A stretch of DNA of 64,000 bases, from contig OZ025258.1 of NCBI GenBank assembly GCA_964019135.1, positions 12,555,771 through 12,619,770 of the forward strand, read 5' to 3'. Source of the DNA: Arenicola marina. Its lineage: Eukaryota > Annelida > Polychaeta > Arenicolidae. Under the pieces are notes generated by a model. It was given only the letters and a program-made list of their open reading frames with translations, searched no databases and had not been told where the DNA came from. Below, one piece after another: positions 7,807 through 64,000 of the stretch. The translations under genes were made by a program, and so were the position numbers. Positions within the stretch are counted from its first letter, which is position 1; every line of letters starts with the position of its first letter.

Positions 7807-9880
7807 CAGGGTGTTATCGACACTGGGGAGTTATCGACACCCATAAACAAAAAACACTATAATTTATTACTGCGTATGCGCAAGACTGTCACATTCAGAA
7901 CTAAGTTTCCCGCCGAAATACTCTCTTCGGTGAATCTACACGAAGGTGAATAGCATTAGAATTTTGAGAGCTAAGATTCGAAATTTCTACGTAACCGGCC
8001 GTCTCGTTGACAAAATGGCGGCCGTTAACTGTTGTGTTAAGGTACAAGGCATTTATGGTTCACTGTTACACAATGTACTTATCTGTTTTATTGCATAATG
8101 GTAATGCAAAGTTGTTGTGATAGCCTTGTCATAAGTTGTATCCAACTTTTCATGTTTATGTTAATGAGATGCGCCTTAGGGGGGGGGGGGGGGAGCACAA
8201 TTGCTTCTGAAAAAAGTGCGAGGCCGGATGTTATCGACACCCGCATGTCAAATCGACCCTTGGGGCATGTGCAAAGTGCACTCGTGATACTGGGGGTTTA
8301 TATCAAATACGCTCTGCATATTACCGATCGACAAAGTAATTTAACGGACGGACAATTTGATATCCAATAGAAGGCTATGTATGGTGTTTCCGTTCTAAAC
8401 GAAGTCTGGTCCTGCTATTCAAAAAAATACTACTGTGGTTCGTCCGTTTACATATATACGCCATGAGAAGGCGGTTAGACCGTTAGTACATTGCGACTTA
8501 AGTATTCTCGTTCCATTCGCACAATAAGTTTTACCCTCAGAAAATGGCAAAATACTTTTTTTTATGAACTGAGAGGTCTGAGAGTTTATAGCCCCGATGT
8601 CAAATAGTCCGTCCCTGACTACAGCGCAAACCATAGAAATAAAAGTAATTTTATGTTATTCAGATCATGGCCTCTCAGCTCCGCGTGAAACGCGTTGGTT
8701 ACAAGCCCGAGAATATGGCATTGGCCATAAAGATGGTCCGCGATGCGGGCATGACTAAGAAGGCGGGCTGCTCGGCACTATGGCGTCTCTCGGACAACCC
8801 TGTTGGACAAGTTGTCTGGCAGGGTGCCCGAACCACCTACGCATCCTGGTTCCCAGCCTGTGTTGACTCCTGCTGAGGAGGAGAGGCTGGTTGCCCACAT
8901 AATGGGCATGTGTGACTTGGGGTTTCCCGTCACACTGGCGGAGCTGAAGCAGGATGTAAAGCGCATCCTAGATGTTGATGGCCGTGAGACCCCGTTTAAG
9001 GGTAACTTGCCAGGTACGAATATACGGTTCGTTATTGCTTCTTTCGACGTGTTTGACAATACGATGGTTAATTTACTGTTAGTGCTGTAGTATTTACTCA
9101 CGCTGGATGAATAAAATTAACGTAGGACTAGGTCTTATATATAAACGGATAAAATTAACCCACATGAACACGTTTTCATATCACTATATTGACAACCATT
9201 TCTGGCACCAATATGTTATAGATAGATATATATGTTACCATGCTACGTAACAGATACATTTTTCGGTCTAATTATATCAATTAATTTCCCCGGTCACATT
9301 TTTTTGTAGGGGATGACTGGTATCGGGCCTTTATCCGCCGCAATCCATCGGTGGCGGAGAGGGCTCCCCAAGCTCTGGGGCAGCGGAGAGATTCTGTTTC
9401 GTTGCCTCAGCTCGAGGCTTGGTTTACCTCCCTGGAGGCGTTTGGGCGACGTGAAGTCCCGGATTGGGATACCTTGATGAAGGATCCACGTCGCGTCTTC
9501 AACGCAGATGAGTCTGGATTTCCGCTCTGCGTTAAGACTGGGAAGGTTCTGGCGCCGCGAGGACGCAAGAGCATTTTTCAAGTGGTCGCGGGTGGGAAGA
9601 CCCAGTTGACGGTCTTGGCGGCGTTCAACGCCATGGGCGAGTATTCCCCTCCCCTCATTGTTTACCTCGGCCAGAGGCTTCGAGATATCGGTCTGAGTGA
9701 CTTTCCCACAGCTCTCTTTGGCACATCGGAGAGCGGCTGGATGAACAGCGACTTGTTTTTTGAGTGGCTAAGCGCGCTGGTTAAGTTTGCGCAAGAGCGG
9801 AACATTAGGTCTCCGATTATGTTGTTTGTTGACGGCCACTCAACGCACATACTACGACGACTACTGATTCTTTCGTGGGT
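7807..9880 (+). mobile_element. pogo/Tigger-like DNA transposon, decayed, right end lost
   Basis: The probable left end is CAGGGTGTTATCGACACTGG near 7,807; related phrases (GTTATCGACACCC) recur at about 7,832 and 8,228. Many pogo-superfamily elements begin with CAG. An NRF1-like site (ATGCGCAAG) lies near 7,875, and AAAATGGCGGCC near 8,013 gives a YY1-like site with an ATG, followed eight codons later by a possible donor AAG|GTACAA. The transposase occupies 8,667 to about 9,880. No matching right terminus is found: the sequence passes directly into an unrelated dispersed repeat at about 9,881. Confidence 0.6.
8667..9880 (+). pseudogene. pogo-like (CENP-B/DDE_1) transposase remnant
   Basis: Exon A (8,667-9,013) encodes a psq-type helix-turn-helix (ENMALAIKMVRDAGMTKKAG), then LDKLSGRVPE and a second DNA-binding region (LTPAEEERLVAHIMGM), ending at a CAG|GTACG donor. 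Exon B starts after TTTTTGTAG at 9,310 in matching phase (DDWYRAFIRRNPS). It continues into the DDE_1 catalytic core with the first Asp in FNADESGF, then TVLAAFNAMG, SGWMNSDLFFEWL and the second Asp in LFVDGHSTH. A frameshift lies near 8,785-8,803 inside the first helix-turn-helix, and the region with the third acidic residue is missing because the coding sequence ends at the junction near 9,880. The element cannot move by itself. The superfamily call is secure. Confidence 0.8.
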
Positions 9881-10235
9881 TACCGCTGGGGAAGCTGGGG
9901 AAATTGGGTATAATTGAGGTGGGATTGGCAGTTTGGTTCGATTGCGGGGAATTACTTTTGAGAAGTACATCTGTCTTAGTGACAGTGCCATTGGGGTAAT
10001 AAAGCTGCAAACCGAGTGAAAGACTTTGTTTACTGCCGCACTCAAGCGCCGAACGGTCAATACGCTACAATATTTATAATATAACTTTGTGGAGAATAAT
10101 CAGTAAGTGTTTAATCAGACCCATTTTACGATGTAATTCATACGAAGATAAATGACGCGAACATTTTTGCGGCCACCTTTGCTATTTACATGGGATATAT
10201 GTGGCGTCACATTCAGCGTTTCACAATGGACAGCG
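9881..10235. repeat. Dispersed ~0.35-kb repeat with TATA-like motif, copy 1
   Basis: Starting at GGGGAAATTGGGTATAA this stretch matches 15,482-16,010 in the same orientation. Shared blocks are GAGGTGGGATTGG, AAGTACATCTG, GTGACAGTGCCATTGG, AATAAATGACGCGAA, and the end GTCACNTTNAGCGTTTCA. Copy 2 is longer inside. There is no coding potential; the family is unknown. Confidence 0.7.
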
Positions 10236-41438: not shown

Positions 41439-44400
41439 TCAAGTCAGTTGCACGCGGCAGGTATAACAGTGTGGAATATTACAGTTATAAGAATATGTAT
41501 TAACAATAAGGTGTTTAATATATTTTGAATACCCTTCTAAACTATGCGTATGAACCTTTTGAATAATTTGGCTTGGTTCATTATTGACGACTTCAACCAG
41601 ACTATATCTAATACATTTCGTAACAAAGTCATGCTGAGCTCTAACGGTGGGAGCATAGTTTCGGTAGCGAGTATAATGAGTATGCACGTCGTCATTTCGG
41701 ACCATGGACAGTTTATAAAAATAGCCAGGTAATTTTTCATTAGTTAATTTGTGACAAAATTTTAATTTTTTTAAACGATGTATGTCTTCTAATTTTAGTA
41801 GATTTAGGCGCTTAAACAATGGTTCTGTATGTGCGCTATACCCACTCAAAGTAACAATGCGTATGGCTTTTTTTGCAGTTTACCTAGTCTGTCTGCTTGA
41901 TAACCCCAGGCTAGAATACCATAGTTTAAGTGCGGTAATATTAGAGTGTTATATATAGTCAATAGAATATGCTTAGGCAGGGTATATTTTAATTTGTATA
42001 AAATTCCAATTACCTTAGATATTTTACATGCGATTTTTTCGATATGACTGTGCCACTTCATGTGTTTATTTATGATTACACCCAGCATATCAAAATTGTC
42101 CACATGCTCTAAAATAGTGTTGTTCATGTAAAGCTGGGGAATTTGCACTCTCTTTTGTGGCGTATGACATACCATAAACTTACATTTGTTAGGGTTTAAA
42201 GACAGACGGTTTATATTTAACCAGTCGCCTATTTTAGACAGTTCATTATTTAATATATCGCTGCAATCCAGGGCAGTGGACTCCTTCATAATGGGCCTTA
42301 GAGTACTCAATAAACTGGTATCGTCCGCATAAATGATAAATTTAAAGAGGGTACTGGCGGAGACTATATCGTTGATATATATTATAAATAAGAGGGGGCC
42401 AAGAATTGAACCCTGCGGGACCCCTGTTGTTATAAGAGAAAGGTCTGAATCGCTATTTTCAATATGGACGTACTGCTTACGACCTTTTAAATAACTAGTT
42501 AAAAGCAGACCTGCGTTTCCCGAGACTCCATAGTGGTCTAATTTTTGTAAAAGAATACTATGATTAATCGTGTCAAACGCTTTGGAGAGATCAAGAAATA
42601 TATTGATAGGCACATCTCCCACCTCCATCTCCTGCAGAGTCCGATCGACTAATTCGAGGATTGCTAATTCTGATGAGTGTTTGGCCCTAAAATCGTACTG
42701 ACAGTTATTTAATAACTTATCAATTTGAAAGTGTTGATACAGCTGTTCAACTATAACTTTCTCAAACACTTTAGAAAAAGCGGGCAATACTGATATCGGT
42801 CTGTAATTATTTACTAATTTTTCATCGCCGCTTTTAAACACCGGAATGACTTTAGCTATTTTTAGTTTATCTGGAAAAGATTCCAGTTGTAATTGACTGA
42901 TTAATGACATGAGAGAGAGCTTCGCTTACTTCTGGTTTTATGTCTTTCAGGAATTTAACAGAAATATTGTCATGCCCATAACTAGCCTTTGGCTTTAAAC
43001 CATCAATAACCCTTTCAACCATCAATAACCCTTTTACAAGGAGCATGCAGATACTTTTTGAAGGAAATATCACAGGTCTTATTTAGTTTCCCAGCGAGAT
43101 TTGGTCCAATATTAGTAAAGAAGGCATTAAACTTAGTAACTATTTCAAGTTGGTCTGAGGTTGCTTGCCCGTCTATAGTGAAATAATCTGGGAGTTTTTT
43201 CTTATCCTTTGACCTGTTTAATATGTCTTTAAGAGTACTCCAGGTTTGTTTCATATCACTTTTACATTTTTCAAAACGGGACTGAAAATATTGTCTCTTT
43301 GCTAGTTGAATATTGCGCCTTAAAATGCCATTATACGTACGAAGATTAGTGTTAAGCGTATCATATAGTTCACTCTCCACTGGGGTTGTTTTTACCTTTT
43401 TGTATAGTTTATCACGAAAGGCAATCGACTTCAATATACCGGCCGTAATCCAGTTTGCTTTCTTATGCTTTCGCTTATTAAATTTTACAGTTCTGATTGG
43501 AAAATGCTTCTCTTTTAGATTGAGAATAATATCTTCAATTATGTTGTAGTTGTCATTCGGGTTTGCTATTAAACTAGTATCCAGTTTATCGGAAACGTCA
43601 ATCGATGAAAGCTCATTTCTCAGGTTTAACAAACCTTCTGGGTAAAGCTTCTTGATTTTTACAAACTTAGGCGTTTTAGCGCATTTTTGTGAGGTGCGCA
43701 TACAAACAAAATAAGGTAAATGGTTAGAGATCAATTTTACAATTACCCCAGCAGTGGTTTGTAACGTATTTGGCGAAAGTTTGCAGTAAAAGTTATCTAT
43801 CAAAGAGGGTCTATTTTTTGATAACCTAGTTGGAAGCGTTATTTTAGGAAAAAAACTCAATGTGGTGACAGTCTCAAAAAAATCGTTTATGACAGCTTTA
43901 TCATAAATTTTAAGGAGATCAATATTGTAATCCCCAGCAATGACCACTTCCTTGTTTTGTTTATCAATCGATCTAAGATACTGGTTGAACTGTTCAGTGA
44001 ATACTCTATAGTTTTCGTTCAAGTCTCGTGGAGGTCTGTAAATATTACCTATAATAATATTCTTTTTCATAAATCTGCCAGATATGTTCACAAATTGTCC
44101 TTCCCAATTAGTTTTTTCTCCTGTATAAGATATAGAGGTATAATCATATTCCTCCTTTAAATATATAATTAAACCTCCATGAGCATCCTTGTGATATAAT
44201 ATTGTAACCATGTAAGTTAAACAGAGTAAGATCGGCATCAGCCGATAACCAAGTCTCTTGGATACATATAGCGCTAAAATCATGACCTCGTTCTCTTACT
44301 GTTTCTAAAAATATTCATTAAATTTTGCAGATATGGAACAACAATTTAAACTTAATACAGAAAAATCAGACGAGTTACAATTCAAACAATTAATTAAGTG

Positions 44401-45650: not shown

Positions 45651-46959
45651 TCACGGCTGTAGGCGCATTTCCTCACGTTTCATGAGAGCTGCGTCAGCTG
45701 CCTTTTCATGAATGTCAAACCTCTTGCCAGCTGTTATTCGTCCCGGATGAGTCGTGGAGATGAAGACAACAATGTCAATTTGCTGTCGTCTCTGAAGGAG
45801 GTATCGCAGGTGATTACCTGCCCCGTGATTGCCGTCGTCTTGCCAGCTCTCTTGAAACTTAGCCTTGGTATCCGACAGCCTGAAGGCTGCGACGTTGTGG
45901 GCTGATGCCGCCAGAACAGGATTCAGGAGCAGCTTCCTGTAGGCTTGACGTACTTCCTGGATGGTTCGGGCTTGTGCCACGGTTGCCATGATGGATACAC
46001 CATTGGAAGTGATAGGAGCGCCTGGTATCAGCTCCGGCGCTTTCCTTTCCGAGGATATTTCTTTCTTCCAGAGACATGTCAAGGATGCCCCTTGCTGACA
46101 CCGCAGGTAGGTAGTCATTTTGCTTGTCATTGTTAATGTATAGGGCATTGTTTGTAATCCTGGTTTTGATAGATTGCGGTGCTGCACGGGTCTTCATTAT
46201 TTGAGCCTGTTCTCCGAATTTGCGTCTTTCCTCAAAGATCTCAGGTGGGTTGTGGGGTGATACTTTTATCTTGTCTTTCCCTTTTGGAAAATGCTCCCGA
46301 CCGAACTGCAGGATTTTCTCTGCGTCCTTGTAATTAAGCAGTTTGACCACAATTGGTCTGATTCTCTTAGAGCTTGTGATCTTTGGGCCAAGCCGATGGC
46401 ATCTCTCTATGGTGGGGTGACATGAGTAGCCATACCTGGTGAGAGCTGATATCACAGTCACTTCGCAGTCTTCACTGGCTTCAGGCTCTGGAATCTGGTG
46501 AAATAAAAGATTATTCCTCATGGACCGCCATTTGATTTCGACACAGTCATCCCGAAGCTGTCTGAGCATAATATCCTGCTTCCCAACAATTCCTCTCATC
46601 ACATTTAGCTCTCTTTTGAGGTCCTTGTTATCCATTTGTAAAATGGCCATCTGACTGGCTAAGTCACCGGCATCTGCTTCATGGGATGCCAACTGTTCAG
46701 TAATACCATTGGGTCCATATATTTCACTGGTATGCACGTCCTGTTGAGACGATATGGTGTCCAGTTTGCTGTGAATTGAAGCCAGTGACTGCGCGATCTG
46801 CTCTATGTCACACTCCTTTGTTGATATGGGGCCGTCGCTCGAGTCGTCGATATTGGCCCCTATATCGCTCAGAGACTCGCTTTCACTGCAAATATTCATC
46901 TTTTTGTTTACTGTGTCTTCACTTTTAGTTCTGAATCTTTTCCTCGACCTCTTCCCCAT
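45651..46959 (-). pseudogene. LINE ORF1 protein
   Basis: An N-terminal basic segment (MGKRSRKRFRTKSED) is followed by an acidic/Ser region and a coiled-coil-like stretch (LASHEADAGDLASQMAILQM). Next comes an RRM-like part (MRNNLLFHQIPE, IERCHRLGPK, RPIVVKLLNYKDAEKIL) and a C-terminal domain. This is the layout of L1-type ORF1 RNA chaperones. A frameshift near 46,040 moves the C-terminus (PELIPGAPITSNGVSI ... LMKREEMRLQP) to another frame. Confidence 0.75.
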
Positions 46960-50763: not shown

Positions 50764-52969
50764 CATGATTGGAGTTAGAATCGCAGCTCTTTATATTAGC
50801 GATGATCACACGCTTTTGTTTTGCTCCCACAATAGTCGCAATTTCCGGTTTAAATAAATTAGAGTATCGCCTCCTTATTGGTCAATCGCGGTCCCACCTC
50901 CAAAAAGGGCTGCCACTCATGAGACAACCGCATTCTGGTCTATCAACGGTCTAACCACTCATATATTACATAAATCTACTTGGATGGTTATAATTCTGAT
51001 ATGCGCAGTGGTTAGTTGTGCATCCAAGGACAGCCTTAGCCGATCTTCGGTGTCAGGCAAGTGAAGGCAAACAGCCGGCAGGTAGGCAGCAAGTACAGCC
51101 CGTTGATGCTACGCATTGACGTAGAGCATAAGTATGCCCTTCTCGTAGGGGCTCGATAAGATTCCGTAGTGACTGTACAGCCCTATAATCTGAACGGTGA
51201 TTTGTCGTCTATGCTCTGGTTTCCTTGTGAGTGGAATCATATCAAACTTCACGATCTGTACACCCCACGACAAAACATCTTGACGGCATTAAAGTGTTTG
51301 TGCCACGCCAAAACGACTTTAGCTCATATTAATCTTCTGTGTTTCCACGCTTATATTATAGAGCTGTAACGCCCCAAATAGTAGAGGGTATACTTTTTTC
51401 ACTTGTTTTCGCACCTACCTATTCAACTTCTGCGAGCGAGGAAAGTGACGTCAAAGGGGAATACAAACGCATGTGCTTTTATATTGAGACTCAGATTCTT
51501 TCTGCTCATTGGCTTGAACTGAACGAAACGCGATCAACCATGAAAACAACACACGCCCTCGACAACAGATGTCTACGGACTGCATCAAAGCTCACCTGTC
51601 AGTCTTGTGACATCATTGGGGAAATTTCAAATAACGCTCAGATGCAATGCTCCCAGAAATAGACCCGCAGGACCTCACTTGTGCTACTACTACTTGCTAC
51701 TTGAAATAAAAAATGTTAACTCCCATTAAAACATATTGTTATTTGTTTATGTTCCCTAAACCAAGTTAACCTTGAGCAAGGCAAAATCGTGGCACGAACA
51801 CTTTAGGTAAGAAAAAATACCGCTTTGTAGACTGTGACGACCACTAAACCCACCGGTCACTTATGCTGGGACTGCGTGTGGCACGGCGCTCTTCTGACCT
51901 AAACAACTTTCATGTGGCTACTTAGCTATTCGAGACGTCACATCGCAGCCCCGAATATATAATATGGTGGCTGCAGACATTATAAGCAACATATAATTTG
52001 CTTACACAATCAAATATCACTTTGTGACCCGTAAAACAGCCGACTGCTACTTTACATACACATATATCTCTACGCGAACGGTAAAACAGCCGACTACAGC
52101 CTAGTAAACAAAATATAATTACCTCACACATCAGATATACATTGGTGACCAGTAATGTAGGCTATCCCGGTATAGCACATGAACATTTTCTTATAATTAT
52201 AAATTCAAATGTCACTGTGAATCTACAACAGCTCACCGCGTCCTTAACACCATACAAGACTGTGATATTCACAGTTTTGTTAAACGATTGAAAACGAAAT
52301 AAAAAAAAAATTGTTGTCTTGGCATAGAATATAAGAAACATTGGGCCTCCGATGTTTAGCACATGATATCCTCACTTGCTGGAGATACTAATTGGATTTT
52401 GCATAGCAGAATAACTTTGAAAGGTCAGATACTACATTCCAAAAACTACAAGCATATATCCGAGTATTGGACCAAAATTCTATTGCTTATGATCTCATAG
52501 ATGTCGAACTTATTTCTGATGTATGCATATTTACCGAAGGCAGAGATGGGCACTCTCTATGCGAGGAACCGAACCACAAAGAGATGACTTGACACAATTT
52601 AATGCAAACAATATAGTGTATTGGTTCAGGACTAGCAAGCTGTATACAGGAAAGCAATACCTCTCGGCTCGGTGTTTGTATCGACATCACCAGGTGACAG
52701 TTAATGATATGTTATATCATCCTTCTTCAAAGGTTGATATCAAATGGGATTAACGGTCACTAATTATTGGGACCAATGTATTAGCTTTTCAGCGCACAAA
52801 TTTAAAGTCAGCAATACTTCACTATAAGAAAAAAAACGCAGCAAATACATCCGATGAAATTGCTCAGACATTCTATAACTTACATTCTGAGTCAATGATA
52901 TTAATGTGAATATAGTTCCAAACAGCAAATTGCAAATCTTCATTCTGCAATTTAATTCATAATTATATT
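50764..52969. other. Intergenic, no gene seen
   Basis: Around 51,985-52,165 there are imperfect tandem units sharing GTAAAACAGCCGACT (52,030 and 52,080) and a TTGGTGACC/TTTGTGACC phrase. The ORF at 51,339-51,662 has no family resemblance. Confidence 0.4.
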
Positions 52970-53425
52970 ACTCTCGCAATCTTAAAACAGCCTAAATTAA
53001 AAGACCTACATAAATTACAAGAACTTGAGTTTACTATAAACTTGTTAATAACGAACTGCCATTATATTTTTATCAAGCGAGTACCTTTTGAAGTGTATAC
53101 GACATATAATACCAGACAAAGGCGTACTGTTCACATCCCAAGAGCCAAATCATAAGTTTGCCGATCACTGCATTAGACACAATATACTAACCATAATGAA
53201 TAACACACCACAAATCATCTTAGACAAAGCAACATCACATGGTTTAAAGGGTTATCCACAATACATAAAAAATGACATGTTATTAATCTAGCTTTTTAGG
53301 TAGCTCTCAGGCGAGCGACTAACCGTCTTAATCGGAGTTTCCCAAACTAATGTCAATGTATTTTCTCTTGCCAGTTCTATTCACTTTACGTTTTTATTGA
53401 TTTGTTGCACGTTGAAATAAACGTA
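52970..53425 (+). mobile_element. LINE C-terminal fragment
   Basis: The plus-strand frames LKQPKLKDLHKLQELEF, FADHCIRHNILTIMNNTPQI and LKGYPQYIKN parallel the C-terminus of the 41.1-kb LINE (CIRYSLVEVVNNEPSQIIQK, LEGYSKYIKH). Frameshifts split it, and it ends near GTTGAAATAAACG. Confidence 0.65.
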
Positions 53426-54100
53426 TATCCTATATCCCAGCCTATCCATGCTGGGGAGGCTGTGATGATCACTCCCAATACATGCCGGAAGCGCTAACAC
53501 CACACGTTGTCAGGATACCCCTCTGATAACCATTTCAACATGATGGGCTCGGCTTTTACATGGTACTAACGTATACCGTTACACTGCAGTCTCAAACATC
53601 CTCTCTGAGGTGAATGTGACAAAGAACTCCGATGGTATTACCTGTTGATTGCGGCCAAGAAGTGCTTTTATATATTTTGATTGAATAGACGTTTCGTAAT
53701 TAATACTGTCTATTTATTATCATTATTGTCGCCCATGAGCTATTGTTGACAGAAGCTGACTACAAAGGCTGATTAAATTAGAAACTTAATATCCAGCCAG
53801 GCATAGAAGCCGGCAATGCGTGAAAGCAATCTATATGGATTTGATTTGATTGGGGTTTAACCGCACAATCTATTTGGAAGTATCAGTGATGATTAGTTAT
53901 GTGCGAATCTATAGGTTCAATCTGGCACATATGTGGCCAAGCACAGCTATCATTTACAAAGTAACACTTATCAAAAGAAGTAATTAAGTCACAGCTGTTA
54001 TGTAAGTAGCATGCAGTCACATCGTGTCAGACCATATTTGTAGTCCGTTCCTTAATTTTTCTCCTCCGTATGGAGGCGTTTAGATTGGGCGAGAACTCTG
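53426..54100. other. Intergenic upstream of receptor gene
   Basis: I see no recognised gene or repeat in this stretch. Confidence 0.4.
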
Positions 54101-54330
54101 ATGGAATTGGTGACGGCGCGGCAAACGCTCCCAACGCGTCATAACTTGGTGACCAATAGAGCGATCGATACTCCGAGCTGAGCCCCGCCCAAGCTGGAGT
54201 CCTTTTTCCTTAATCGGTAGGCAATGTGTCTTCGGTCTTTAGGGAAATCATAATTTAGAATTTATTTGGCGTTGACTCCCATGAGCCTTTGCGCGGGATT
54301 CGCGGATTCGCTTCCGCCAGCGCATTCCCG
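54101..54330 (+). promoter_or_regulatory. Probable promoter of the receptor gene
   Basis: A CpG-rich patch just upstream of the receptor carries a CCAAT box (GACCAATAGA, 54,151-54,160) and a GC box (CCCGCCC, 54,184-54,190). No TATA box is at a proper distance. The transcription start is probably between 54,200 and 54,400; the 5' UTR then runs to the ATG at 54,555. Confidence 0.45.
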
Positions 54331-54554
54331 CGGCACATGCTCTAGAGGAACCAACGGGAAAGGACGCACATTTGGACAGTGATATTGCTAACGTGATATC
54401 GCCGGCACGTCGCCCCACATATTTGGTGCCAGTTCAATTGACACTCGAATATTTTCCACACAAGTTCAACCTTATAACTATACATCGGACGAAGCTCCTT
54501 GTAGTTTTTCAGTCATTCGCAAACGAGTCAAGGCTGATAATTTGGCCAGTTAAG

Positions 54555-57500
54555 ATGGAAACGCCGAAATTGATGGCTTGGGTTCTTCAGATGGTGGTAT
54601 GTAGTCACGTGATCATGTGTGAACGAGTTTCGTGGAACAGCGTAATAAAACACCAACATGAACTAACTGACCGTCAGGTCAATCTCGCAGTGGGAATTGC
54701 ATTAATGTTGTGCAACAAGCTCGACGAATGTCATGGAACGAAATCCAAATCTATCATCACCTACAAAGCAGTTTTATACACCGCGATTGTAAAGGTCATG
54801 GATGAATGTTCACCAGAAATAGCGTGTAAACAGGAAAGAGTACGCATCAATGGCAAGATAAGTGAACCATTACCTCTGTTGGTATCTTGTGGTAGTTTGT
54901 ATGCAAGGACCAGGGGTTTAGTGGACATGGCTTGGTCGAGATCTGGCTCGGCCGCTGTCGCGTGGAACGTCACTATTGTAAGGGTGAGGTCCCTAAAGGA
55001 TACCAACCTCTGCGAAGCCGTGGAGCATCTTATACTACGAGAGTCGGATCGGGTCCTGGCAACTCTCTGCGGCGTGTGGCCCTCGCATTCCTACGTCACA
55101 TCCGGACCAAAAGTAACAATCCTCTGGAAAGCTGTTGTTAATATGTCTTCGGATGCCGAGTTTTGTTTGACATTTGCACAAGTGGCATCCGGATATAGCA
55201 TTGACGCCAAAGTCGACAAAGAAGGCGGGGAAGCGTTATGTCATAATTACCCCTATTTATGTTTCGCCATTGGGGGAGTCCGGCTTCGAGGACCACCGTT
55301 GGATGCATTTGACGTCATAGGGAAGACTAAGTACTACAGCTGGTGGATATCTGAGGCTATTCTGACTACGCCTGTGATTGTGATATCCAAGTTCCAGTGT
55401 CCCAACCGAGAGTATGCAAAATATGTAGCACTTGTTATTGTGGATGGTTTGCAAGAGGTCCAGGATCCTAGCACTGCATTTAAAAATGTTGTCTTGGGCG
55501 AGGCATCATGTCGAGATTTTAATCTGGGTGACAGACGTCATCAAGCCAGTGTGGGAGACGCAACAATTATAGTAAGGGCCGACGGCAAGTCGGTGTTCCT
55601 GATTGACATAAGTCGCACAGTGATTGGCGTGTCATGTCCGGGGCCAAATTGTGTCCACCAACGTCACGTCATCGGCGAGGGCGACGAGATACTGTTTGAA
55701 AGTAACTCGCGCTACACAACGCTGTCCCACGTGATTCTATACGTCAACAGCTCTATCGCCAGATACGTACATATCAGGAATCTGTCGGTAACATACGACG
55801 GCCTTACTTACTTAGGGTGCAGAACCGGAGGCATGTTCATACTGAATCAGGATCCGCTCAATGTCATGGGAAAGATTTGTTCTCCGCGGCTAGCCGCTAT
55901 CTGGAGCAGGCCTCTGGGACCTTTCGGTGTTCATTTCGGCGGCAAGCCATTGTCATTTGTGGCCAAGACATACAGTGGAATCGCGGTCATTACCCTCAAT
56001 GGCATTGCTCAATTGTCGCCTTGCTTTGGTCTCGTCAATGGCCATTTGATGCCGACGAATCTAGGCCACGGAACATCTTGGGGCGTGTTACCGTCAGTGG
56101 CTAACATCACTGGGTATGCAACTAGCAAGGTTAAATACTTGTTCATTGAATACGTACCAAGCGAATGTCTCGTCGTGCAGCTAATTCTCTCCGAAGATAA
56201 TTATTACTGGAAATTGCATGAGAAATTGAGTGTGAAATACATACCAGTCGGTGATGACGTCAACTCGATATCGCGTGCAATATCGGTCAATGCAGTTCAG
56301 AACATCGATCATGGTGACTTTGACAGTATTCACAAAGTCCAACAGGCCCGAAGGCCTTCCTGCTATTTCAAAGTTTCTACATATGACTTGCACAGTAGGG
56401 AAAAATTTCAAATAATGAAGTTATTCGATCTCGCCCCAGATCAATCTATCATTCACAAACTAAAGTGGCAAGTTTGGGGGCAGATTGTGCAACAGGACTC
56501 AAGTTCAATTTGTTTATTAGGCGGAAAGACAATACGCTTGACATCGGAACCTAACGAGTTGAGCGAATTGTTATGCCTGCCAGTGGAAGAGACCAACGCG
56601 TGGTGGCCGTCTGTCTTTGCTGCTCCCGATATATACTGCAGAACACCACGCGTTGTTTGCGCCAGTACCGTAATACCCGGTCAGTATAGTTCATCTTTCC
56701 TGGACGTGTCCATGGTTATTTCCAAGCCTCTTAACCTAGGTCTCAACTGCTGCCTTCTGCAAATAGCTCTTCACCGCGCATGCGGATTAACTGGAAGTAG
56801 CGATATTGTGCTGGGCACACATTATAGCTCTTTCAAGATAATTAAATATACAGCGAGCTTCATATGGTCAAGAGACACACCTATAATTGGATCAAAGGAG
56901 GCCGGGTCCTGGTTTAACTGGAAGCTAGACAATCATGAAAATGACTATGGGCTACAAATGGTCTTTAATGACCGTTGGAGCAATGCATCAACGTGCGAGA
57001 CCATGGTGCGTTATTACCATAACATAGTCAAACAAACACCGGCTTCGCTAATGGCGTTATCACTGCGGAAATCTCCACGTGGTCCGTGGCACATGACAAA
57101 AACTGGAGCCTTCTACCAAATCAAGTTGGTGCCGAATCTAACTTGGAATTCAGCCAAAGCCTTCTGCCAGTCCGCGGGGTATGGCCTCCTTAGCCTCAGC
57201 AGCGACATGGAACTGGAACTTCTGATGAAGTTGGTGTTCGAGAACCCGACAACAGCACAAGCCCATGCCTCAGTTCAAATGATTTTCTTAGCCATGCACA
57301 TGACGAATTTGGTAAGGATGGTTGGCTTATAATGTTTACGCTCATCAGTTTAGATGTCAGCGAGCAACGGACGCCACCATGCATGACGTAATATAGCAGC
57401 CATGCTAATGTCGAGTAATTTCTTTGTAGGAATTCGACACATTACATTTGCCGTTAGACGATTGCGAATATAAATTTATATGTCAATACATATGATGGGT

Positions 57501-60500
57501 GTTGATGTGATTGAAGGACAGATTCAGTCATCTTAACGCTCAGTTTAAGTCGAGTAAATGATCTTGTTATGATATTTAATCGCATTATATTTATTAACAT
57601 ATTAGACCATTTGTTTACCATTGTAAGCACATTTTATTACAGACAAATTATGCCAGACCAACCGCAGCCGAGGCGCTCAAAATGAGAAACAAGAACCACA
57701 TGCTATGGTATCCCAGCAAAAAAATCGCATACGGTCGAAAATTCGGAAAATATGCATCCTTATTTGATTCGGCGCTGGTGAAATCTGCATTGCAAGGAAA
57801 CCACATATACCAACTCAACAGTTCCATGTGTCCGGCGCTGACTGTATTTTCAGCCAGTCAGTTTGTCTGGGTCGACATTCCTTGTGAGGGCAGTGTCGAG
57901 AGATCATTAATAGTATGCGAAGGACGAAGTTGGCATAATAATAATAATACCCATCTGATAACCAGCAAATGGTCTAATGAAAGCCAGTTTAACGTGTGGC
58001 CCAGGCAAGCGTTGGAATGCCGGGACCAATGGGACGTGATTGGCGCCTCCTGTTACCGACTCTTCACGCTGCCTGCAATCAATGGAACGGCCGACTGTCC
58101 CCTGGCGAAGAATGTCTGCCTCAGGAGGCAAAGCCACGTGGCAAGACTCTCATCCCTAGACTCGGGTCCAGGACTTCACTTCCTTTATTACATTTGGATA
58201 CGGATTGACCGGCCGTTGAAGAACATGATATACTACGGAGAGAGTACCTTGACGTGTGTCCAAAGAAACCTGTCGCAGTACGCGTTCCATTTCCAGAGTT
58301 CCTTTTTCGACGTGGATTCCCAGAGGAATGGGAGCCTAACAGACAATAGCTCCCACGTGTTGTGCGAGATCGCACTGGATTCTGTCAATGTCACTTGTAT
58401 GTCAGGGCAGGCGATGTGTGCCGAAGGTACGTGTGTTATCGATACTCACTGGTGTGACGACGTCGTGGACTGCCCCGACCAATCAGATGAGATTAATTGC
58501 CAATCCACAAAGGCGGTGAAAGTCCCTCACAATGGGGGGAATGTGTCCTGTTTTAACGCTCGTTATCCTGACAATTGTACGTGTTCAGGGCTGTACTACC
58601 AGTGTAGACGCTCCGGGAAATGCATACCCGTGGCACACGTATGTGACGGGGTGATCGATTGTGCCTTTTGTGAAGACGAATTGTATTGTTTGCCGTCACG
58701 TCAATTGAATAATTCAGAGTTTAACTGTTCTCATGGCGGCCTCAAAACCTTTATCAGCAGCCAAGCCAAGATAGTCACTGTCAATAGTTCCAATATTAAA
58801 ACACGAATTCGCGAGAACATTGCCAACGCTCTAGATATACATAGTGTAAGCTGCTGGAAATCTGAGTCGCATGTTGCCCGCCATAAGATATGTGTCTACG
58901 AGCGGGATAATAAGGGGGCGACTGCGTACTGTAAGTACGAGGAACACCTGAGTGACTGCTCCGAGTACGAGTGTCCCACGATGTTCAAGTGTCCCTTCGG
59001 TTACTGTGTCCCGACCTACTATATGTGCGACGGCCGAGCAGATTGTCCTCACGGGGAAGACGAGGTGCGTTGTGAGCGGCTCTCGTGCCCAGGACTGCTC
59101 CTCTGTCGTCACGACCAGGTCTGTGTCCACCCTAGAAATATCAGGGACGGTGTCGTCCAATGCCCCTCGTCATCAGACGACGAAGCCAGCCAACAAGGAC
59201 TCGCTTGTCCCCATCGGTGTCAGTGTTTCGGCACAGCTTTGTTATGTGTCGGTGCCGAATTCACTAACATCCTTTTCCAATGGCAGCATTCCCTCAAAGC
59301 ACTAATCATTCATCAAGCTAAAGACCCACGCCCTTGGTTATTGCTGGAATTAATTGACTGTATGATATTTGACCTTTCGGATAACGGTATCGACATTATA
59401 CCAACGAACGCCTTCAAGGAGAAATCACAGCTCCGCCGCCTTGATCTGTCACATAACCGCCTTACTTTCGTCTCAGAAGGGACGTTCGCGAGACTCATCA
59501 ACTTGAAGGAATTGTTGTTAGGTAACAACCTACTTGTGAGGTTAGGCACGGGTACGCTGGAAGGCCTTAACAACTTGCAATTACTTTCTATGAACAACAG
59601 TTTTGTGACGCGCCTACCGAACTGTTTCTTCCGTGGTGCACCGAATATTGCAAGCCTTGATCTGTCAAATGGGAAGCTAGAAACTTTAACTGATGATGTA
59701 TTTTGTGGAGGCCAAACGAATATGCAGCAGCTTGACATATCGGGCACGGCTATCGCAGAAGCTATGTTGGCTGGCATGCATCATTTTCCTAAGCTACGGC
59801 TTATCACTGTATCGTCAGCGGCGCTGTGCTGTTACGTCACACACCCAGTGAAGTGTGAAGTTAAGGAAACCGATGAATTGATAAAGTGTGGGGACCTCTT
59901 GCCCACCAAAGTGACCCGTTTGTTCTTGTGGATTGTGTCAGGTTCGTCCATGATACTAAATGCTTGTAGCCTGGTGCTGACTTTGTCAGTCCGGAAGGAT
60001 GTGATGCACAAGAACGCACTGGCTGCCATGTTCTCCATACACACTGCAGTGGCAATCCATGGTGCCCTGATCGCCACGGTGGACGCACAATATAGGGAAC
60101 GGTTTCCTTTCTACAGGACTCAGTGGGTGGATGGATCATTTAACCGGATTTCGGGATTGACATGTAGTGTGCTGTGTCACACGGCACCCATTTTGTTTCT
60201 TATACAAAGCAGCGTCCAGTATATCTCAGTGATGCATCCGTTCAAACGACATAATCTAATGTCCCACGCGAAATATTTTCTCTTTATTTCGGCTGGCATA
60301 ACTTCGCTAACGTTACTTTTCATACTGTTTCACCTCTTTGCCTTTGATCGCGATGACGTTTCTGCCGTGTTCGGCCTCAGTGTGCCCCCAACCCACAGCC
60401 GCACCGGTAATTGGCAGTATGGCGCCGCTTTCTTTATCGGATTGAACCTTGTCCTTTATGGCCCCAACGTTGTGTTATGTATTTTAACAGGCAGGTTGTT

Positions 60501-60780
60501 GGTGATATCTAGCTGTTTGGCAATCGGCGGTCAGGCATCTAGATTATTAAAAAGGCGTGCCGCTTACAAGTCATTCACCAACAGTGCTACTGCCGTTTTG
60601 TCATGTACATTCATCATCCTCATACAAATATTACTGCTGACATCTTCTGAGGAGCGACGCATACTACTTCTCCTCATTTTGCTGTACACACCCGGACTAG
60701 TCAATGTTCTGCTCTCAACCGCCAACTCAATCGCAGGGTTCAGACATCGTGTTAAATCAACTGCACATGGGCCGCAGTGA
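54555..60780 (+). CDS. Multidomain LDLa/LRR 7TM receptor (GRL101/type-C LGR-like) with C-type lectin domains
   Basis: Two exons, 54,555-57,311 and 57,643-60,780 (TGA), join in phase 0 through a 331-bp intron (TTG|GTAAGG ... TTACAG|ACA), giving about 1,964 residues. The ATG at 54,555 is chosen because A at -3 and G at +4 are favourable and it starts a signal peptide (METPKLMAWVLQMVVCSHVI). Residues ~25-850 form an ectodomain I do not recognise. C-type-lectin-like domains follow at ~851-1012 and ~1045-1162, then LDLa modules at ~1171-1205, 1231-1268, 1358-1396 and a degenerate one to ~1437. A CPHRCQCF LRR cap, about six LRRs (~1492-1642), a Cys-rich hinge and seven hydrophobic segments (~1678-1952) complete it. 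LDLa + LRR + 7TM defines relaxin-receptor/GRL101-type receptors, which sense peptides at the cell surface. The usual Asp in TM2, the DRY motif (here VQY) and NPxxY (here NVLLS) are missing, so G-protein coupling is doubtful. Confidence 0.85.
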
Positions 60781-61489
60781 TGGCCTTTACAGAGTAACAC
60801 ACAGTGATGTCGAGAAACACAAAGTGAAATGCTCGTGGCGTAACATCTAATATGTTACATCTGTGTGTTACGCGTGAAAAGCCAATTATTTGAATAGGGC
60901 AATGATGTTGTGACAAAAATACACCCGCAAAGATTTGCAGCTGGCGTTCATATAACTGATTGTATTTGTAACTTAAATTCACCTATATAGCAGTCGCAAA
61001 TCTATTAATATATTATTATTGTTTGCCCGTCCTGGCGATGTATAAACCAATGTGAGGCTGTTGTGTCGATTGGGAATGGTAACGGAAACGGGGAAAATGC
61101 AATGGTGACTGCAACCTGTATGCGGCAGGTCTGTATTGGGTTGAGACAAGTAAGAAAGCCCTTTTTGATAATTCATGTATTGATTATATTCTAGAATATC
61201 TTTTAGTACATATAATTGCGATGTATAATGAGGTGTTAGCTCCGTGCTCACGTCAGGATAAAATAAATATATGGACAGAGAAACGTGTTATGTGATTGGT
61301 GGTGTCATATTTGGAATCGTTGTTTACCAGGCCTCACTGGGGTGTGTGATTAACCCGCTGACTGCTTTGCTTGCAATGAAATCTTGCTCTCTTTTCCAGA
61401 CAGTTGGTTTGTGGCACTCATTTGTCCATTACACAAGAAATGACAAAAAATGAATAGTTATCACCGTTATTTTATGATGCCCTGTGAAA

Positions 61490-61495
61490 AATAAA
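61490..61495 (+). promoter_or_regulatory. Candidate polyadenylation signal of the receptor gene
   Basis: AATAAA is followed within 20 bases by an A-rich run and a TGTGTG element. Another AATAAA lies at 61,262. Either would give a 3' UTR of about 0.5-0.7 kb. Confidence 0.45.
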
Positions 61496-61499
61496 GTCT

Positions 61500-62062
61500 T
61501 CATAAAAAATGTGTGTACTAGACTAATTGAGTCAGTCTTCAAATATAATATAATTGAAAAAGAACAAGCTAGCTAGCTTCAGGAAAGGGAGGTCAACCGT
61601 TGATAACCCATTTATACTTCAAAGCTTGTCACAACATTATGTCAAAGAGGGAGGTTTTATTGTATTTTTGTAGACTTCATGATGCAGTCCCTCAAAAAAA
61701 GTTACTATCGGCTAACGAATTGTGGAATTTATCCGTTAACCTAGCTACACTTAAAAGTACTGTTTTTTTATAATGAGGTTTAAGATCTAACGAAAAATGA
61801 CATTTTCAAAAAAATATTAAATGGAGGCCATGTTATTATCTTGTGTATTCATCTATGCTGGATAAAGGCAAAGTGTATAAATATTCAATGTGTGAGCCGC
61901 AGAGAGTACGAGAGAGAAAAGAAACAACACAGTTCATGACAGTTGACAAGTGTAATATGTAAGGTCAAGGTCTTGCTACATGTAACGTCATCTCGATGGG
62001 GGAGATTTCCTTATCTCAATAAGCATATTGTTACATCCTCCTTGTTATAACAGAGACTTTCC
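61500..62062. other. Intergenic, no gene seen
   Basis: AT-rich, with no recognised feature. Confidence 0.4.
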
Positions 62063-62192
62063 ACAATTTCAATTGTAGTAGAATTTCAACAATTTCAATT
62101 ATAGTAGAATTTCAACAATTTCAATTATAGCAGAATTTCAACAATTTCAATTATAGTAGAATTTCAACAATTTCAATTATAGTAGAATTTCA
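62063..62192. repeat. 26-bp minisatellite, five units
   Basis: Five head-to-tail 26-base units (ACAATTTCAATTATAGTAGA plus six more bases) start at 62,063, 62,089, 62,115, 62,141 and 62,167, differing at two or three positions. A degenerate sixth follows. The array abuts the 3' edge of the Ty3/Gypsy remnant. Confidence 0.9.
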
Positions 62193-62198
62193 ACAAAT

Positions 62199-63110
62199 TC
62201 AAATATGGTATTCTTCGTATCGCTTCGGTGCACGTTTCGTCCTTGTCGACCTCCGTGGTCCGGGGTCAGCGCTTGTTGGGTCAGTTGTAGGAGTTGGTGA
62301 CACTAGGATCTTCTTCTTCTTGTCGTCGATGGGCGTGTTCTGCGCATCAGGAGCAACCATGTCCATGGTTGTGTCAGGGTGTGCTGAGTGCGAGGAGTGT
62401 GATTCCCCTTGGTTTATCTGATGCTGGTCACTTTCAGGTGTAGTGACAGGTCCCAAGTGTACTCTCTATATTACGCCTGTAGCATGTTCCTGCGTCGTCT
62501 TGGACTTCGTAGGACCTTTCATCCAACCTTTGCGTGACAGTAGCTCCTTTCCACGACTTATCTCCAAGTTTAAACGGTGTCATGAGCACTCTATCATTGG
62601 AGCGTAATTCGGGCAATTCATGTGCTGATCGATTGTAATAAATCGCCTGACGGTCTTGCATGGCTTGTAGGCGATGTCTGTCGCATTGAACATCAGAATT
62701 AGGGGTCAACAGGTTGGTCGTAGATCGTGGTCTTTGTGCGTCTTCCAATAAGTCGTTGTGCAAGGCTGCTCCCTATGCCTTGTGATGGGGTGTTGCGAAT
62801 ATGCAGAGGTGCAAGGTATTGGTATTCATGAGCAAGCTTTGCCTTGCGGATCATTCTCTTTGCAGACTTGTCTCTAAACCGTTGGAATTCATCTGACAAG
62901 AATTGTGGGCCACAGTCAGATACCACAATGTCTGGAATCCCCATTCGGGCAAAGTGTGATTGTGTATGTGTGATTTCAATTCTGCATTCATTCCTGGCCA
63001 ATACACGGATTCGCGCGCACGTCTGAGACATCCTTCTATGCCAGTGTGACCAACGTGAAGGTCGGCATTGATTTGATTCCTCAGACTGCGGGGTATGATG
63101 AGCCTTTCTC
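62199..63110 (-). mobile_element. Ty3/Gypsy LTR-retrotransposon pol remnant (fossil)
   Basis: On the minus strand the end of an integrase core (GIPDIVVSDCGPQFLSDEF), the connecting region, a C-terminal beta-barrel-like part (GDKSWKGATVTQRLDERSYE) and a basic tail (RRSTRTKRAPKRYEEYH) are recognisable in order. This is the C-terminal part of a Ty3/Gypsy polyprotein. It is broken in a few places, and the protease, RT and RNase H regions and both LTRs are not seen. It abuts a LINE 3' end at about 63,120. It is probably of moderate age, since its motifs are still easy to read. Confidence 0.8.
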
Positions 63111-63120
63111 CTCAATTCAA

Positions 63121-64000
63121 TTTTCAATTCAATATCATTTATTTGGGCAAGAACGAGTGCATACAAACGTAAAAATACAAAACAAAGTGGTAACTTAATT
63201 CATTCTTACCCTGGAGACTCCTATTAAGACCACGATGGTCGCTAGCATAAAAGCCACCGCAAAAAAAAAAAAAAAAAAAAAATTATCGCTTAATCGTAAG
63301 AGGGTTACATTGCACTCATTTGTATAAAAATGTAGGGATCTTGCGAGAGATAAATTAAAGACACATAGCCCATTTCTAGAGATATATAAAACAGGGGAGG
63401 ACCTCTAATAACCTAATCATTTTTACAAATATAACAATTAACTAAATGACATTCCAGAGAATACTTCTCGACTAAGAAATTTTTGACATATCTTGAAAAA
63501 CCGTCCAGTACATGTGTCTCAATCTTATTCAATATAATATCTGGCATTTGGTTTATGCATCTGGCAACGCGATATCTCAAACATTGTTCGGCAAACTTAT
63601 GCTTCACACGTGTAACTAGCAGATCATCCTTGTGTCTTGTGTTGTAATTATGCAGGTCCGACAATTTAGAAATAGACAATTCAGTTAAAAAATAATCTGG
63701 CAGATCACCGTGGAGATACTTGTAATAAAATTTTAGTTGGTGGTAAATCATTATATCAGCCAACTTCAATATACTAAATTGTTTAAATAATGGTTCCGAA
63801 TGAGAACAATAAGAGCTCTTGGCTATGATACGAGTCGCCTTTTTTTGCAATAGCCTTATACGATCAGCTTGATAACCCCATGCTAGAACATTATAATGTA
63901 AATGGGGTAGGATTAAAGAGTTGTATATAAGTTTCAGAACATAGGATGGTACGGTATGTTTTAACTTGCACATAACTCCAATAACCTTAGATATTTTAGA
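63121..64000 (-). mobile_element. LINE 3' end (same clade as the 41.1-kb LINE), runs off window
   Basis: The open frame 63,973-63,413 encodes the RT C-terminal region (LILPHLHYNVLAWGYQADRI, FAEQCLRYRVARCINQMPDI, VLDGFSRYVKNFLVEKYS), ending at a natural-looking stop after CYICKND. The 3' UTR has a 22-base A run on the plus strand near 63,261-63,282. The end reads AATAAATGATATTGAATTGA and further TTGAAT-type repeats. This part has no frame breaks, unlike the 41.1-kb copy, so it may be a younger insertion. The rest of ORF2 lies beyond the window. Confidence 0.85.

What the first reader, a model, noticed from the sequence alone, without database searches (positions are those of the whole stretch)
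54555..60780. Giant LDLa/LRR 7TM receptor with an intact frame but without the usual class-A switch residues
The 7TM block keeps the TM1 Asn (ILNACSLVL). It has no Asp in the TM2 position (FSIHTAVAIHG), VQY instead of DRY after TM3 (QSSVQYISVMHPF), no CWxP in TM6 and NVLLS instead of NPxxY in TM7. Even so, ~1,964 codons are open and the LDLa Ca-binding acidic residues are kept. That pattern suggests a selected, possibly non-G-protein-coupling receptor, such as a decoy, adhesion or immune-type sensor, rather than a pseudogene.
Basis: partly seen in the sequence, partly recalled or inferred. Interest (0 to 1): 0.72.

Follow-up and report, generated by a model that had tools for sequence, protein, structure and literature searches.

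The report
Expanded lectin-LRR 7TM receptor family member
This is an intact gene for a very large animal cell-surface receptor with lectin-like, LDLa and leucine-rich modules on a seven-helix membrane domain; it belongs to a multiplied gene family whose membrane domain is still under selection although it has lost the standard G-protein-receptor switch residues.

Summary
Two open exons (54555-57311, 57643-60777; phase-0 GT-AG intron) encode 1964 aa; splice sites, start codon and odd 7TM residues recur in paralogues. The gene is not alone: 22 loci, whole or broken, lie on contig C19 (16 near-full-length exon-2 matches at 90-91%), six on C6 (61-65%), four on C18 (36%), more distant relatives elsewhere. 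It is GRL101-like (type C LGR) in architecture; exon 1 adds about 840 aa, perhaps CUB-like, and half of a C-type-lectin-like domain completed by splicing. The 7TM is the most constrained part (dN/dS 0.26 against 0.75 for residues 501-870), so it is not a pseudogene. Loss of D2.50, C3.25-C45.50, R3.50, W6.48/P6.50, P7.50 and Y7.53 is shared by C11 and C19; distant relatives keep these in graded fashion. "Selected, non-canonical receptor" is supported; "non-G-protein-coupling decoy" is not shown, since RXFP1, the nearest solved relative, also lacks R3.50. CTL+LDLa+LRR+7TM clusters are published (Biomphalaria SudRes2), so this is a new variant of a known kind. Function and expression are untested.

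The parts
54555..57311 (+). Exon 1: signal-like start (by reading), large ectodomain with possible CUB-like domains, then first half of a C-type-lectin-like domain (57075-57311)
   Evidence: Open 919 codons; related exon 1 on C19, C6, C18, C2, C12 and in L029, L030, L032, L038, L039, L040; CUB-type Foldseek hits on a low-confidence model
57312..57642 (+). Phase-0 intron (331 bases) interrupting the C-type-lectin-like domain
   Evidence: Boundaries conserved in 8 of 8 intact C19 copies; phase-0 intron read at the corresponding place in L029, L030, L038, L039
57643..60777 (+). Exon 2: second half of lectin-like domain, possible second lectin-like domain (by reading), LDLa repeats, LRRs, hinge, 7TM, short tail
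   Evidence: 49 matches in own genome
57643..57918 (+). Second half of the C-type-lectin-like domain
   Evidence: Alignment of the spliced domains of 5 family members; their profile hits C-type lectin structures
58396..58500 (+). LDLa repeat 1
   Evidence: Pfam PF00057, 3 stretches in exon 2, only the best with coordinates; this one placed by reading
58582..58689 (+). LDLa repeat 2
   Evidence: As above, placed by reading
58972..59073 (+). LDLa repeat 3
   Evidence: Pfam PF00057 best stretch, exon-2 residues 445-477
59086..59208 (+). Fourth, degenerate LDLa-like stretch
   Evidence: By reading only
59206..59907 (+). Leucine-rich repeats with Cys-rich ends and hinge
   Evidence: Pfam LRR_8 E 1.7e-23; model strands
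59908..60723 (+). Seven-helix membrane domain lacking most class-A switch residues (ends of helices approximate)
   Evidence: AlphaFold model with seven long helices, mean pLDDT 74.7, pTM 0.60; Foldseek TSHR, LGR4, FSHR, LHCGR; residues
60214..60222 (+). V-Q-Y at the DRY position (3.49-3.51)
   Evidence: Q and Y in 20 of 20 C19 loci examined
60703..60717 (+). N-V-L-L-S at the NPxxY position
51836..62656 (+). Approximate extent of homology, in pieces, between this locus and the C19 array (segmental duplicate, intron kept)

Best explanation
[quoted passage not shown] Most likely the distal modules bind variable external, immune or chemosensory ligands, and the LDLa/LRR/hinge part relays binding to a conserved seven-helix domain. 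That domain transmits by a non-canonical route, because the sodium-site Asp, the R3.50 lock, the W6.48 toggle, the P7.50/Y7.53 microswitch and the TM3-ECL2 disulphide are gone. Shown: gene structure, domain order, family expansion, constraint on the 7TM, shared loss of the motifs in C11 and C19. Inferred: cell-surface expression, ligand class and manner of transmission.
For: Two open exons with conserved splice sites. Family in own genome. 7TM dN/dS 0.26 and lectin region 0.31 against 0.75 for residues 501-870; among the C19 copies 0.27 for the 7TM and 0.89 for 501-870 as ratios of pooled proportions (intervals). Intron divergence 0.134-0.138, close to dS. In 20 of 20 C19 loci 2.50, 3.25, 3.50, 3.51, 45.50, 7.49 and 7.53 are as in C11; 3.49 is V (9) or I (11), 7.50 is V in 19. 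N3.25 and Q3.50-Y3.51 also in the one C6 copy sampled (L046). 7TM fold, Foldseek to LGRs, family profile best to RXFP1. Lectin-like domain. A Biomphalaria cluster of CTL+LDL+LRR GPCR genes lies in a resistance-associated region (passages of PMC12297450).
Against: No expression, ligand or signalling data. The C11 branch cannot be polarised on its own. LRR intervals include 1 for 2 of 4 partners. The 7TM of this copy has no Pfam 7tm_1 match. The exon-1 model is poor (mean pLDDT 39). The clade's place in the tree is weak (79/83). In Biomphalaria the validated variant and the top outlier lie in a neighbouring non-GRL101 gene, so even there an immune role is not proved.
Confidence: 0.5

Rival explanations
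1. It still couples to G proteins: other residues do the work of the lost switches, as RXFP1 has Lys instead of Arg at 3.50.
For: RXFP1 in 7tmw reads E-K-Y at DRY, in a chain named as RXFP1 plus Gs alpha; the review passages contrast type B with type A and C LGRs, which use canonical GPCR pathways (PMC4561518); L032 in the same genome has K3.50; ICL3 has 1 variable site of 26; intracellular loops are not relaxed.
Against: RXFP1 keeps D2.50, the Cys pair, CWIP and NPILY; here all of them are lost or changed except N7.49.
Confidence: 0.27
2. It is a decoy, scavenger or scaffold receptor (as type B LGRs or decoy chemokine receptors): it binds ligand and internalises or recruits partners without G-protein signalling.
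For: Nearly all class-A switches lost; type B LGRs do not act through a canonical GPCR pathway (passages of PMC4561518); the DRY motif of decoy chemokine receptors is often degraded (passages of PMC3405870); only 20 residues follow the NPxxY-equivalent.
Against: In most decoy chemokine receptor groups the diverged sites are biased to the intracellular side; here the loss also covers the extracellular disulphide and the sodium site, and intracellular loops are not more variable than helices.
Confidence: 0.2
3. A recently decaying paralogue that happens to be still open.
For: Many array copies are broken: 12 of the 20 fetched C19 loci lack an intact two-exon frame; the C11 copy sits alone, away from the array.
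Against: 7TM dN/dS 0.26 with upper bounds 0.45-0.52; at each of two branch lengths 0 of 400 neutral simulations without a stop.
Confidence: 0.03

Closest known systems
Biomphalaria sudanica SudRes2 GRL101-like receptors (PMC12297450, passages only)
   Same: 7TM with LRR, LDLa and C-type-lectin-like ectodomain; cluster of paralogues, two of twelve incomplete
   Different: Here a further exon-1 region of about 840 aa and a 7TM without the class-A switch residues; the passages seen do not speak of the 7TM motifs or of a CUB-like part in the snail; no link to resistance was testable here
Lymnaea GRL101 / type C2 LGRs (PMC8286064, PMC11863921, passages only)
   Same: Several LDLa, then LRR, then LGR-type 7TM
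   Different: Lymnaea GRL101 has twelve LDLa and six LRRs; here three LDLa and one degenerate, plus a lectin-like domain. No GRL101 sequence was compared here
RXFP1 (relaxin receptor, type C1 LGR)
   Same: Best solved match of the family profile; lacks R3.50 too (Lys)
   Different: Keeps D2.50, Cys pair, CWIP and NPILY; no exon-1 or lectin part (recalled)
LGR4-6 (type B LGRs)
   Same: LRR-7TM fold; an LGR kind that does not use canonical GPCR signalling
   Different: 17 LRRs and no LDLa; no lectin domain (recalled)

Membership tests
Type C LGR (GRL101-like, C2) | LDLa modules N-terminal to LRRs and an LGR-type 7TM | tested here: met
Type C LGR (GRL101-like, C2) | Several LDLa (C2) rather than one or two | tested here: met
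   3 Pfam stretches plus a degenerate one by reading
Type C LGR (GRL101-like, C2) | 7TM groups with GRL101/relaxin receptors in a tree | tested here: inconclusive
   Family profile best to RXFP1, LRRs included; no GRL101 sequence at hand; tree of own-genome rows only
Class A (rhodopsin-like) GPCR, canonical | Pfam 7tm_1 match | tested here: not met
   No match for this copy at E up to 1; 5 of 13 family members match at that limit
Class A (rhodopsin-like) GPCR, canonical | D2.50, DRY, CWxP, NPxxY, C3.25-C45.50 | tested here: not met
   of the positions looked at, N1.50, Y3.51 and N7.49 are kept
SudRes2-type CTL-GRL101 receptors | C-type-lectin-like + LDLa + LRR + 7TM in one protein | tested here: met
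   the lectin domain of this copy alone has no Pfam match; spliced domains of 4 of 4 relatives tested match Lectin_C at E below 0.003, 1 of 4 over the cut-off
SudRes2-type CTL-GRL101 receptors | Role in parasite resistance | not testable with these tools
   No phenotype or expression data
Decoy receptor | Binds ligand without signalling | not testable with these tools
   Needs cell assays
Pseudogene | Broken frame or neutral evolution | tested here: not met

The most novel reading that the evidence does not exclude
A lineage of LRR-7TM receptors has stepwise abandoned class-A switching while its seven-helix domain stayed under purifying selection, and has been multiplied and fitted with lectin and CUB-like modules as a family of membrane-anchored immune or chemosensory recognition receptors that signal by another route.
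Probability: 0.33. Interest if true: 0.75.

Novelty: new variant of a known kind. Interest (0 to 1): 0.5.

Why it matters
One genome holds a graded series from a receptor with ordinary class-A residues (L033) through partial losses (L029-L032, L037, L038, the C18 sample) to near-complete loss (C19 and C11), with related LDLa-LRR-7TM architecture. That makes it testable whether LRR-7TM receptors can leave G-protein switching while the 7TM stays under selection, and whether GRL101-like clusters form recognition families beyond snails.

Tried and rejected
Pseudogene or chance open frame: rejected. Retrocopy: rejected, intron and flanks are shared with C19. Loss of DRY as proof of non-coupling: rejected because of RXFP1. 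Pfam for exon 1: no family for this copy; among 4 relatives' exon 1 only one weak, sub-cut-off mTERF hit. The AlphaFold model of exon 1 is poor, so its CUB-type hits are only a hint. Naming the animal: two marker families (Bindin, Haemocyan_bet_s) gave no match, and the tool says that this does not show absence; left open. Plasmid collection: no match. Papers: seven searches (two returned none). No listing showed a report of this motif loss in GRL101-like receptors, but only listings, and passages of six papers (PMC12297450, PMC8286064, PMC6267866, PMC11863921, PMC4561518, PMC3405870), were seen.

Errors of mine on the way: one search failed (wrong file names; redone). One search printed several motif residues at wrong positions; searches give the right ones except for TM6, whose column labels are one too high (W6.48 faces C1907, P6.50 faces F1909, by the alignment). 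An earlier count said Q-Y-I for the DRY equivalent and F for C45.50; the right readings are V-Q-Y and G.

Rows dropped: of 20 fetched C19 loci (L009-L028), 8 intact ones (L009-L016) entered dN/dS; L017, L018 and L019 were extracted but dropped (stops, and in L019 a lost donor); L020-L028 were not put in the codon alignment (frame breaks or stops). L036 and L041 were left out of the tree. L034 and L035 end before TM7 in the frame used, so their TM7 columns are not counted.

Full report
The gene. The window holds two long open exons on the + strand: 54555-57311 (919 aa, from an ATG followed by a signal-like stretch, by reading) and 57643-60777 (1045 aa, stop at 60778-60780). In the genome of the window (867 Mb, 762 contigs, unnamed; the window is C11:12555771-12619770) the same donor, acceptor and start recur in 8 of 8 intact paralogues, with introns of 302-359 bases. 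The open frame is not chance: 0 of 400 neutral simulations stayed free of stops at 0.03 substitutions per site, and 0 of 400 at 0.06.

The family. Exon 2 has 49 matching stretches in the genome, exon 1 has 54; the tool scores only the best candidates, so these are lower bounds. On C19 (30.08-30.61 Mb) I count 22 loci, whole or broken, plus two fragments of the 7TM end; 16 have a near-full-length exon-2 match at 90-91%, and neighbours are mostly 18-21 kb apart. Six exon-2 copies lie on C6 (61-65%), four on C18 (36%), and single or clustered distant relatives on C17, C8, C2, C12, C20, C10, C14 and C9. Of 20 C19 loci fetched, 8 (L009-L016) are intact in both exons; the other 12 have stops or frame breaks, and L027 and L028 have about 1.4 kb inserted in exon 1. 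Some C19 copies recur about 93 or 99 kb apart almost unchanged (dS 0.004 for L011/L012 and 0.001 for L014/L015, the latter not a 93-kb pair by place but L014 and L015 are), so the number of independent copies is smaller and assembly duplication is not excluded. The window copy is a segmental duplicate: homology with the array includes the intron and runs in pieces from about 51.8 to 62.7 kb.

Architecture. Exon 2 holds three Pfam LDLa stretches and LRRs but no 7tm_1 match even at E 1. An AlphaFold model of the last 546 residues, made with 12 relatives, gives an LRR arc and seven long helices (mean pLDDT 74.7, pTM 0.60); Foldseek's best hits are TSHR, LGR4, FSHR and LHCGR structures (E to 5.9e-18, TM-scores about 0.4-0.6). 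The family profile's best solved match is RXFP1 (E 1.9e-113, LRRs included). The last 79 residues of exon 1 and the first 92 of exon 2 form one C-type-lectin-like domain. Spliced domains of 4 of 4 relatives tested match Pfam Lectin_C at E 1.7e-4 to 2.8e-3 (1 of 4 above the curated cut-off), and the profile of five members hits C-type lectin structures to 3.5e-26; the window's own domain alone has no Pfam match. The intron cuts this domain in phase 0 at the corresponding place in L029, L030, L038 and L039 too, by my reading of their donors and acceptors. The rest of exon 1 has no Pfam match; a poor model (mean pLDDT 39; stretches of about 111-210, 251-300 and 311-360 at 50-68) has PCPE-1, C1r/C1s, cubilin and neuropilin among its top hits (E from 1.3e-7, target TM-scores mostly 0.1-0.35), so CUB-like is a hint only. 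By reading, residues about 1045-1165 look like a second lectin-like domain.

Switch residues. Ballesteros-Weinstein numbers are recalled and placed through the alignments with RXFP1 and the canonical relative L033. This copy has N1.50, H at 2.50, N at 3.25, V-Q-Y at 3.49-3.51, G at 45.50, C at 6.48, F at 6.50, N7.49, V at 7.50 and S at 7.53. In 20 of 20 C19 loci 2.50, 3.25, 3.50, 3.51, 45.50, 7.49 and 7.53 are the same; 3.49 is V in 9 and I in 11; 7.50 is V in 19 and F in 1. The one C6 copy sampled, at TM3 and TM7 only, has N3.25, G-Q-Y and S-V-L-L-S; the one C18 copy sampled keeps C3.25, R3.50 and P7.50 (read without gaps). Of 12 other relatives, R3.50 is present in 11 (K in L032) and C3.25 in 11 (N in L041, a C6 fragment that keeps R3.50); D2.50 is present in 3 of the 11 that cover it. 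The whole set, NPxxY included, is seen only in L033. So the loss is graded, near-complete in C19 and C11, and partly sampled in C6. In the tree of 14 rows the C19/C11 group sits on a long stem of 2.24 changes per column; its place is weakly supported (79/83).

Selection. NG86 dN/dS of C11 against 8 intact C19 copies: 7TM 0.26, lectin region 0.31, LDLa 0.33, LRR 0.44, residues 1-500 0.61, residues 501-870 0.75. Among the C19 copies the pooled ratios are 0.27 for the 7TM, 0.50 for the LRRs and 0.89 for 501-870. Bootstrap intervals for the 7TM lie within 0.14-0.52 for the 4 partners tested; those for 501-870 reach or nearly reach 1, those for the LRRs include 1 for 2 of 4 and those for 1-500 for 2 of 4. 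Intron divergence (p 0.134-0.138) is close to dS (0.12 overall, 0.15 in the 7TM). Within the 7TM, hinge and extracellular loops vary least (5 of 80 sites over nine sequences), helices 30 of 178, intracellular loops 6 of 44 (extracellular against helices p 0.03, not corrected for several tests; extracellular against intracellular p 0.20; intracellular against helices p 0.82); helix ends are approximate. The copy is therefore under constraint, most in the membrane domain. The C11 branch cannot be split from the array's stem without the C6 genes, whose letters could not be fetched.

What it does. Best reading: a recognition receptor whose distal ectodomain diversifies and whose lectin/LDLa/LRR/hinge/7TM core is kept. 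The loss of nearly every class-A switch, shared across the array while the 7TM is constrained, argues for non-canonical transmission. But RXFP1, with K3.50, is in a chain named as RXFP1 plus Gs alpha, so coupling by other residues stays open; and type B LGRs show that an LGR can work without canonical GPCR signalling. A decoy role is possible but unproved. An immune role is suggested by architecture and by the Biomphalaria SudRes2 region with ten CTL+LDL+LRR GPCR genes and two incomplete ones; there the validated variant lies in a neighbouring Zn-RING-IAP gene and the authors say that variants may not be causal.

Verdict. Observation confirmed; interpretation partly supported; new variant of a known kind (CTL-bearing GRL101-like receptors), interest 0.5.

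Noticed in passing
window 41846-44295, - strand: Non-LTR retrotransposon remains: reverse transcriptase (PF00078, E 3.3e-32) and a weak endonuclease match (PF14529, E 4e-4); the neighbouring 45859-46959 frame looks like an L1-type ORF1 by reading (no Pfam match)
   Followed up: partly
window 62699-63199, - strand: Weak integrase-core (rve) match, E 0.0048, below the cut-off: possible retroelement fragment just downstream of the gene
   Followed up: no
window 9285-9917, + strand: DDE superfamily transposase fragment (PF03184, E 5.8e-5)
   Followed up: no
G000 C19:30.08-30.61 Mb: The array has higher-order repeats of about 93 and 99 kb with almost identical gene pairs (for example L011/L012 and L014/L015); either very recent duplication or uncollapsed haplotypes
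   Followed up: partly
L009-L012, L014-L017, C-termini: 8 of the 9 loci L009-L017 have a different cytoplasmic tail after STAN than C11 and L013
   Followed up: no
L033, L034, L035: Distant relatives in the same genome with ordinary D2.50 and DR; L033 also CWIP and NPILY; useful as canonical controls
   Followed up: yes
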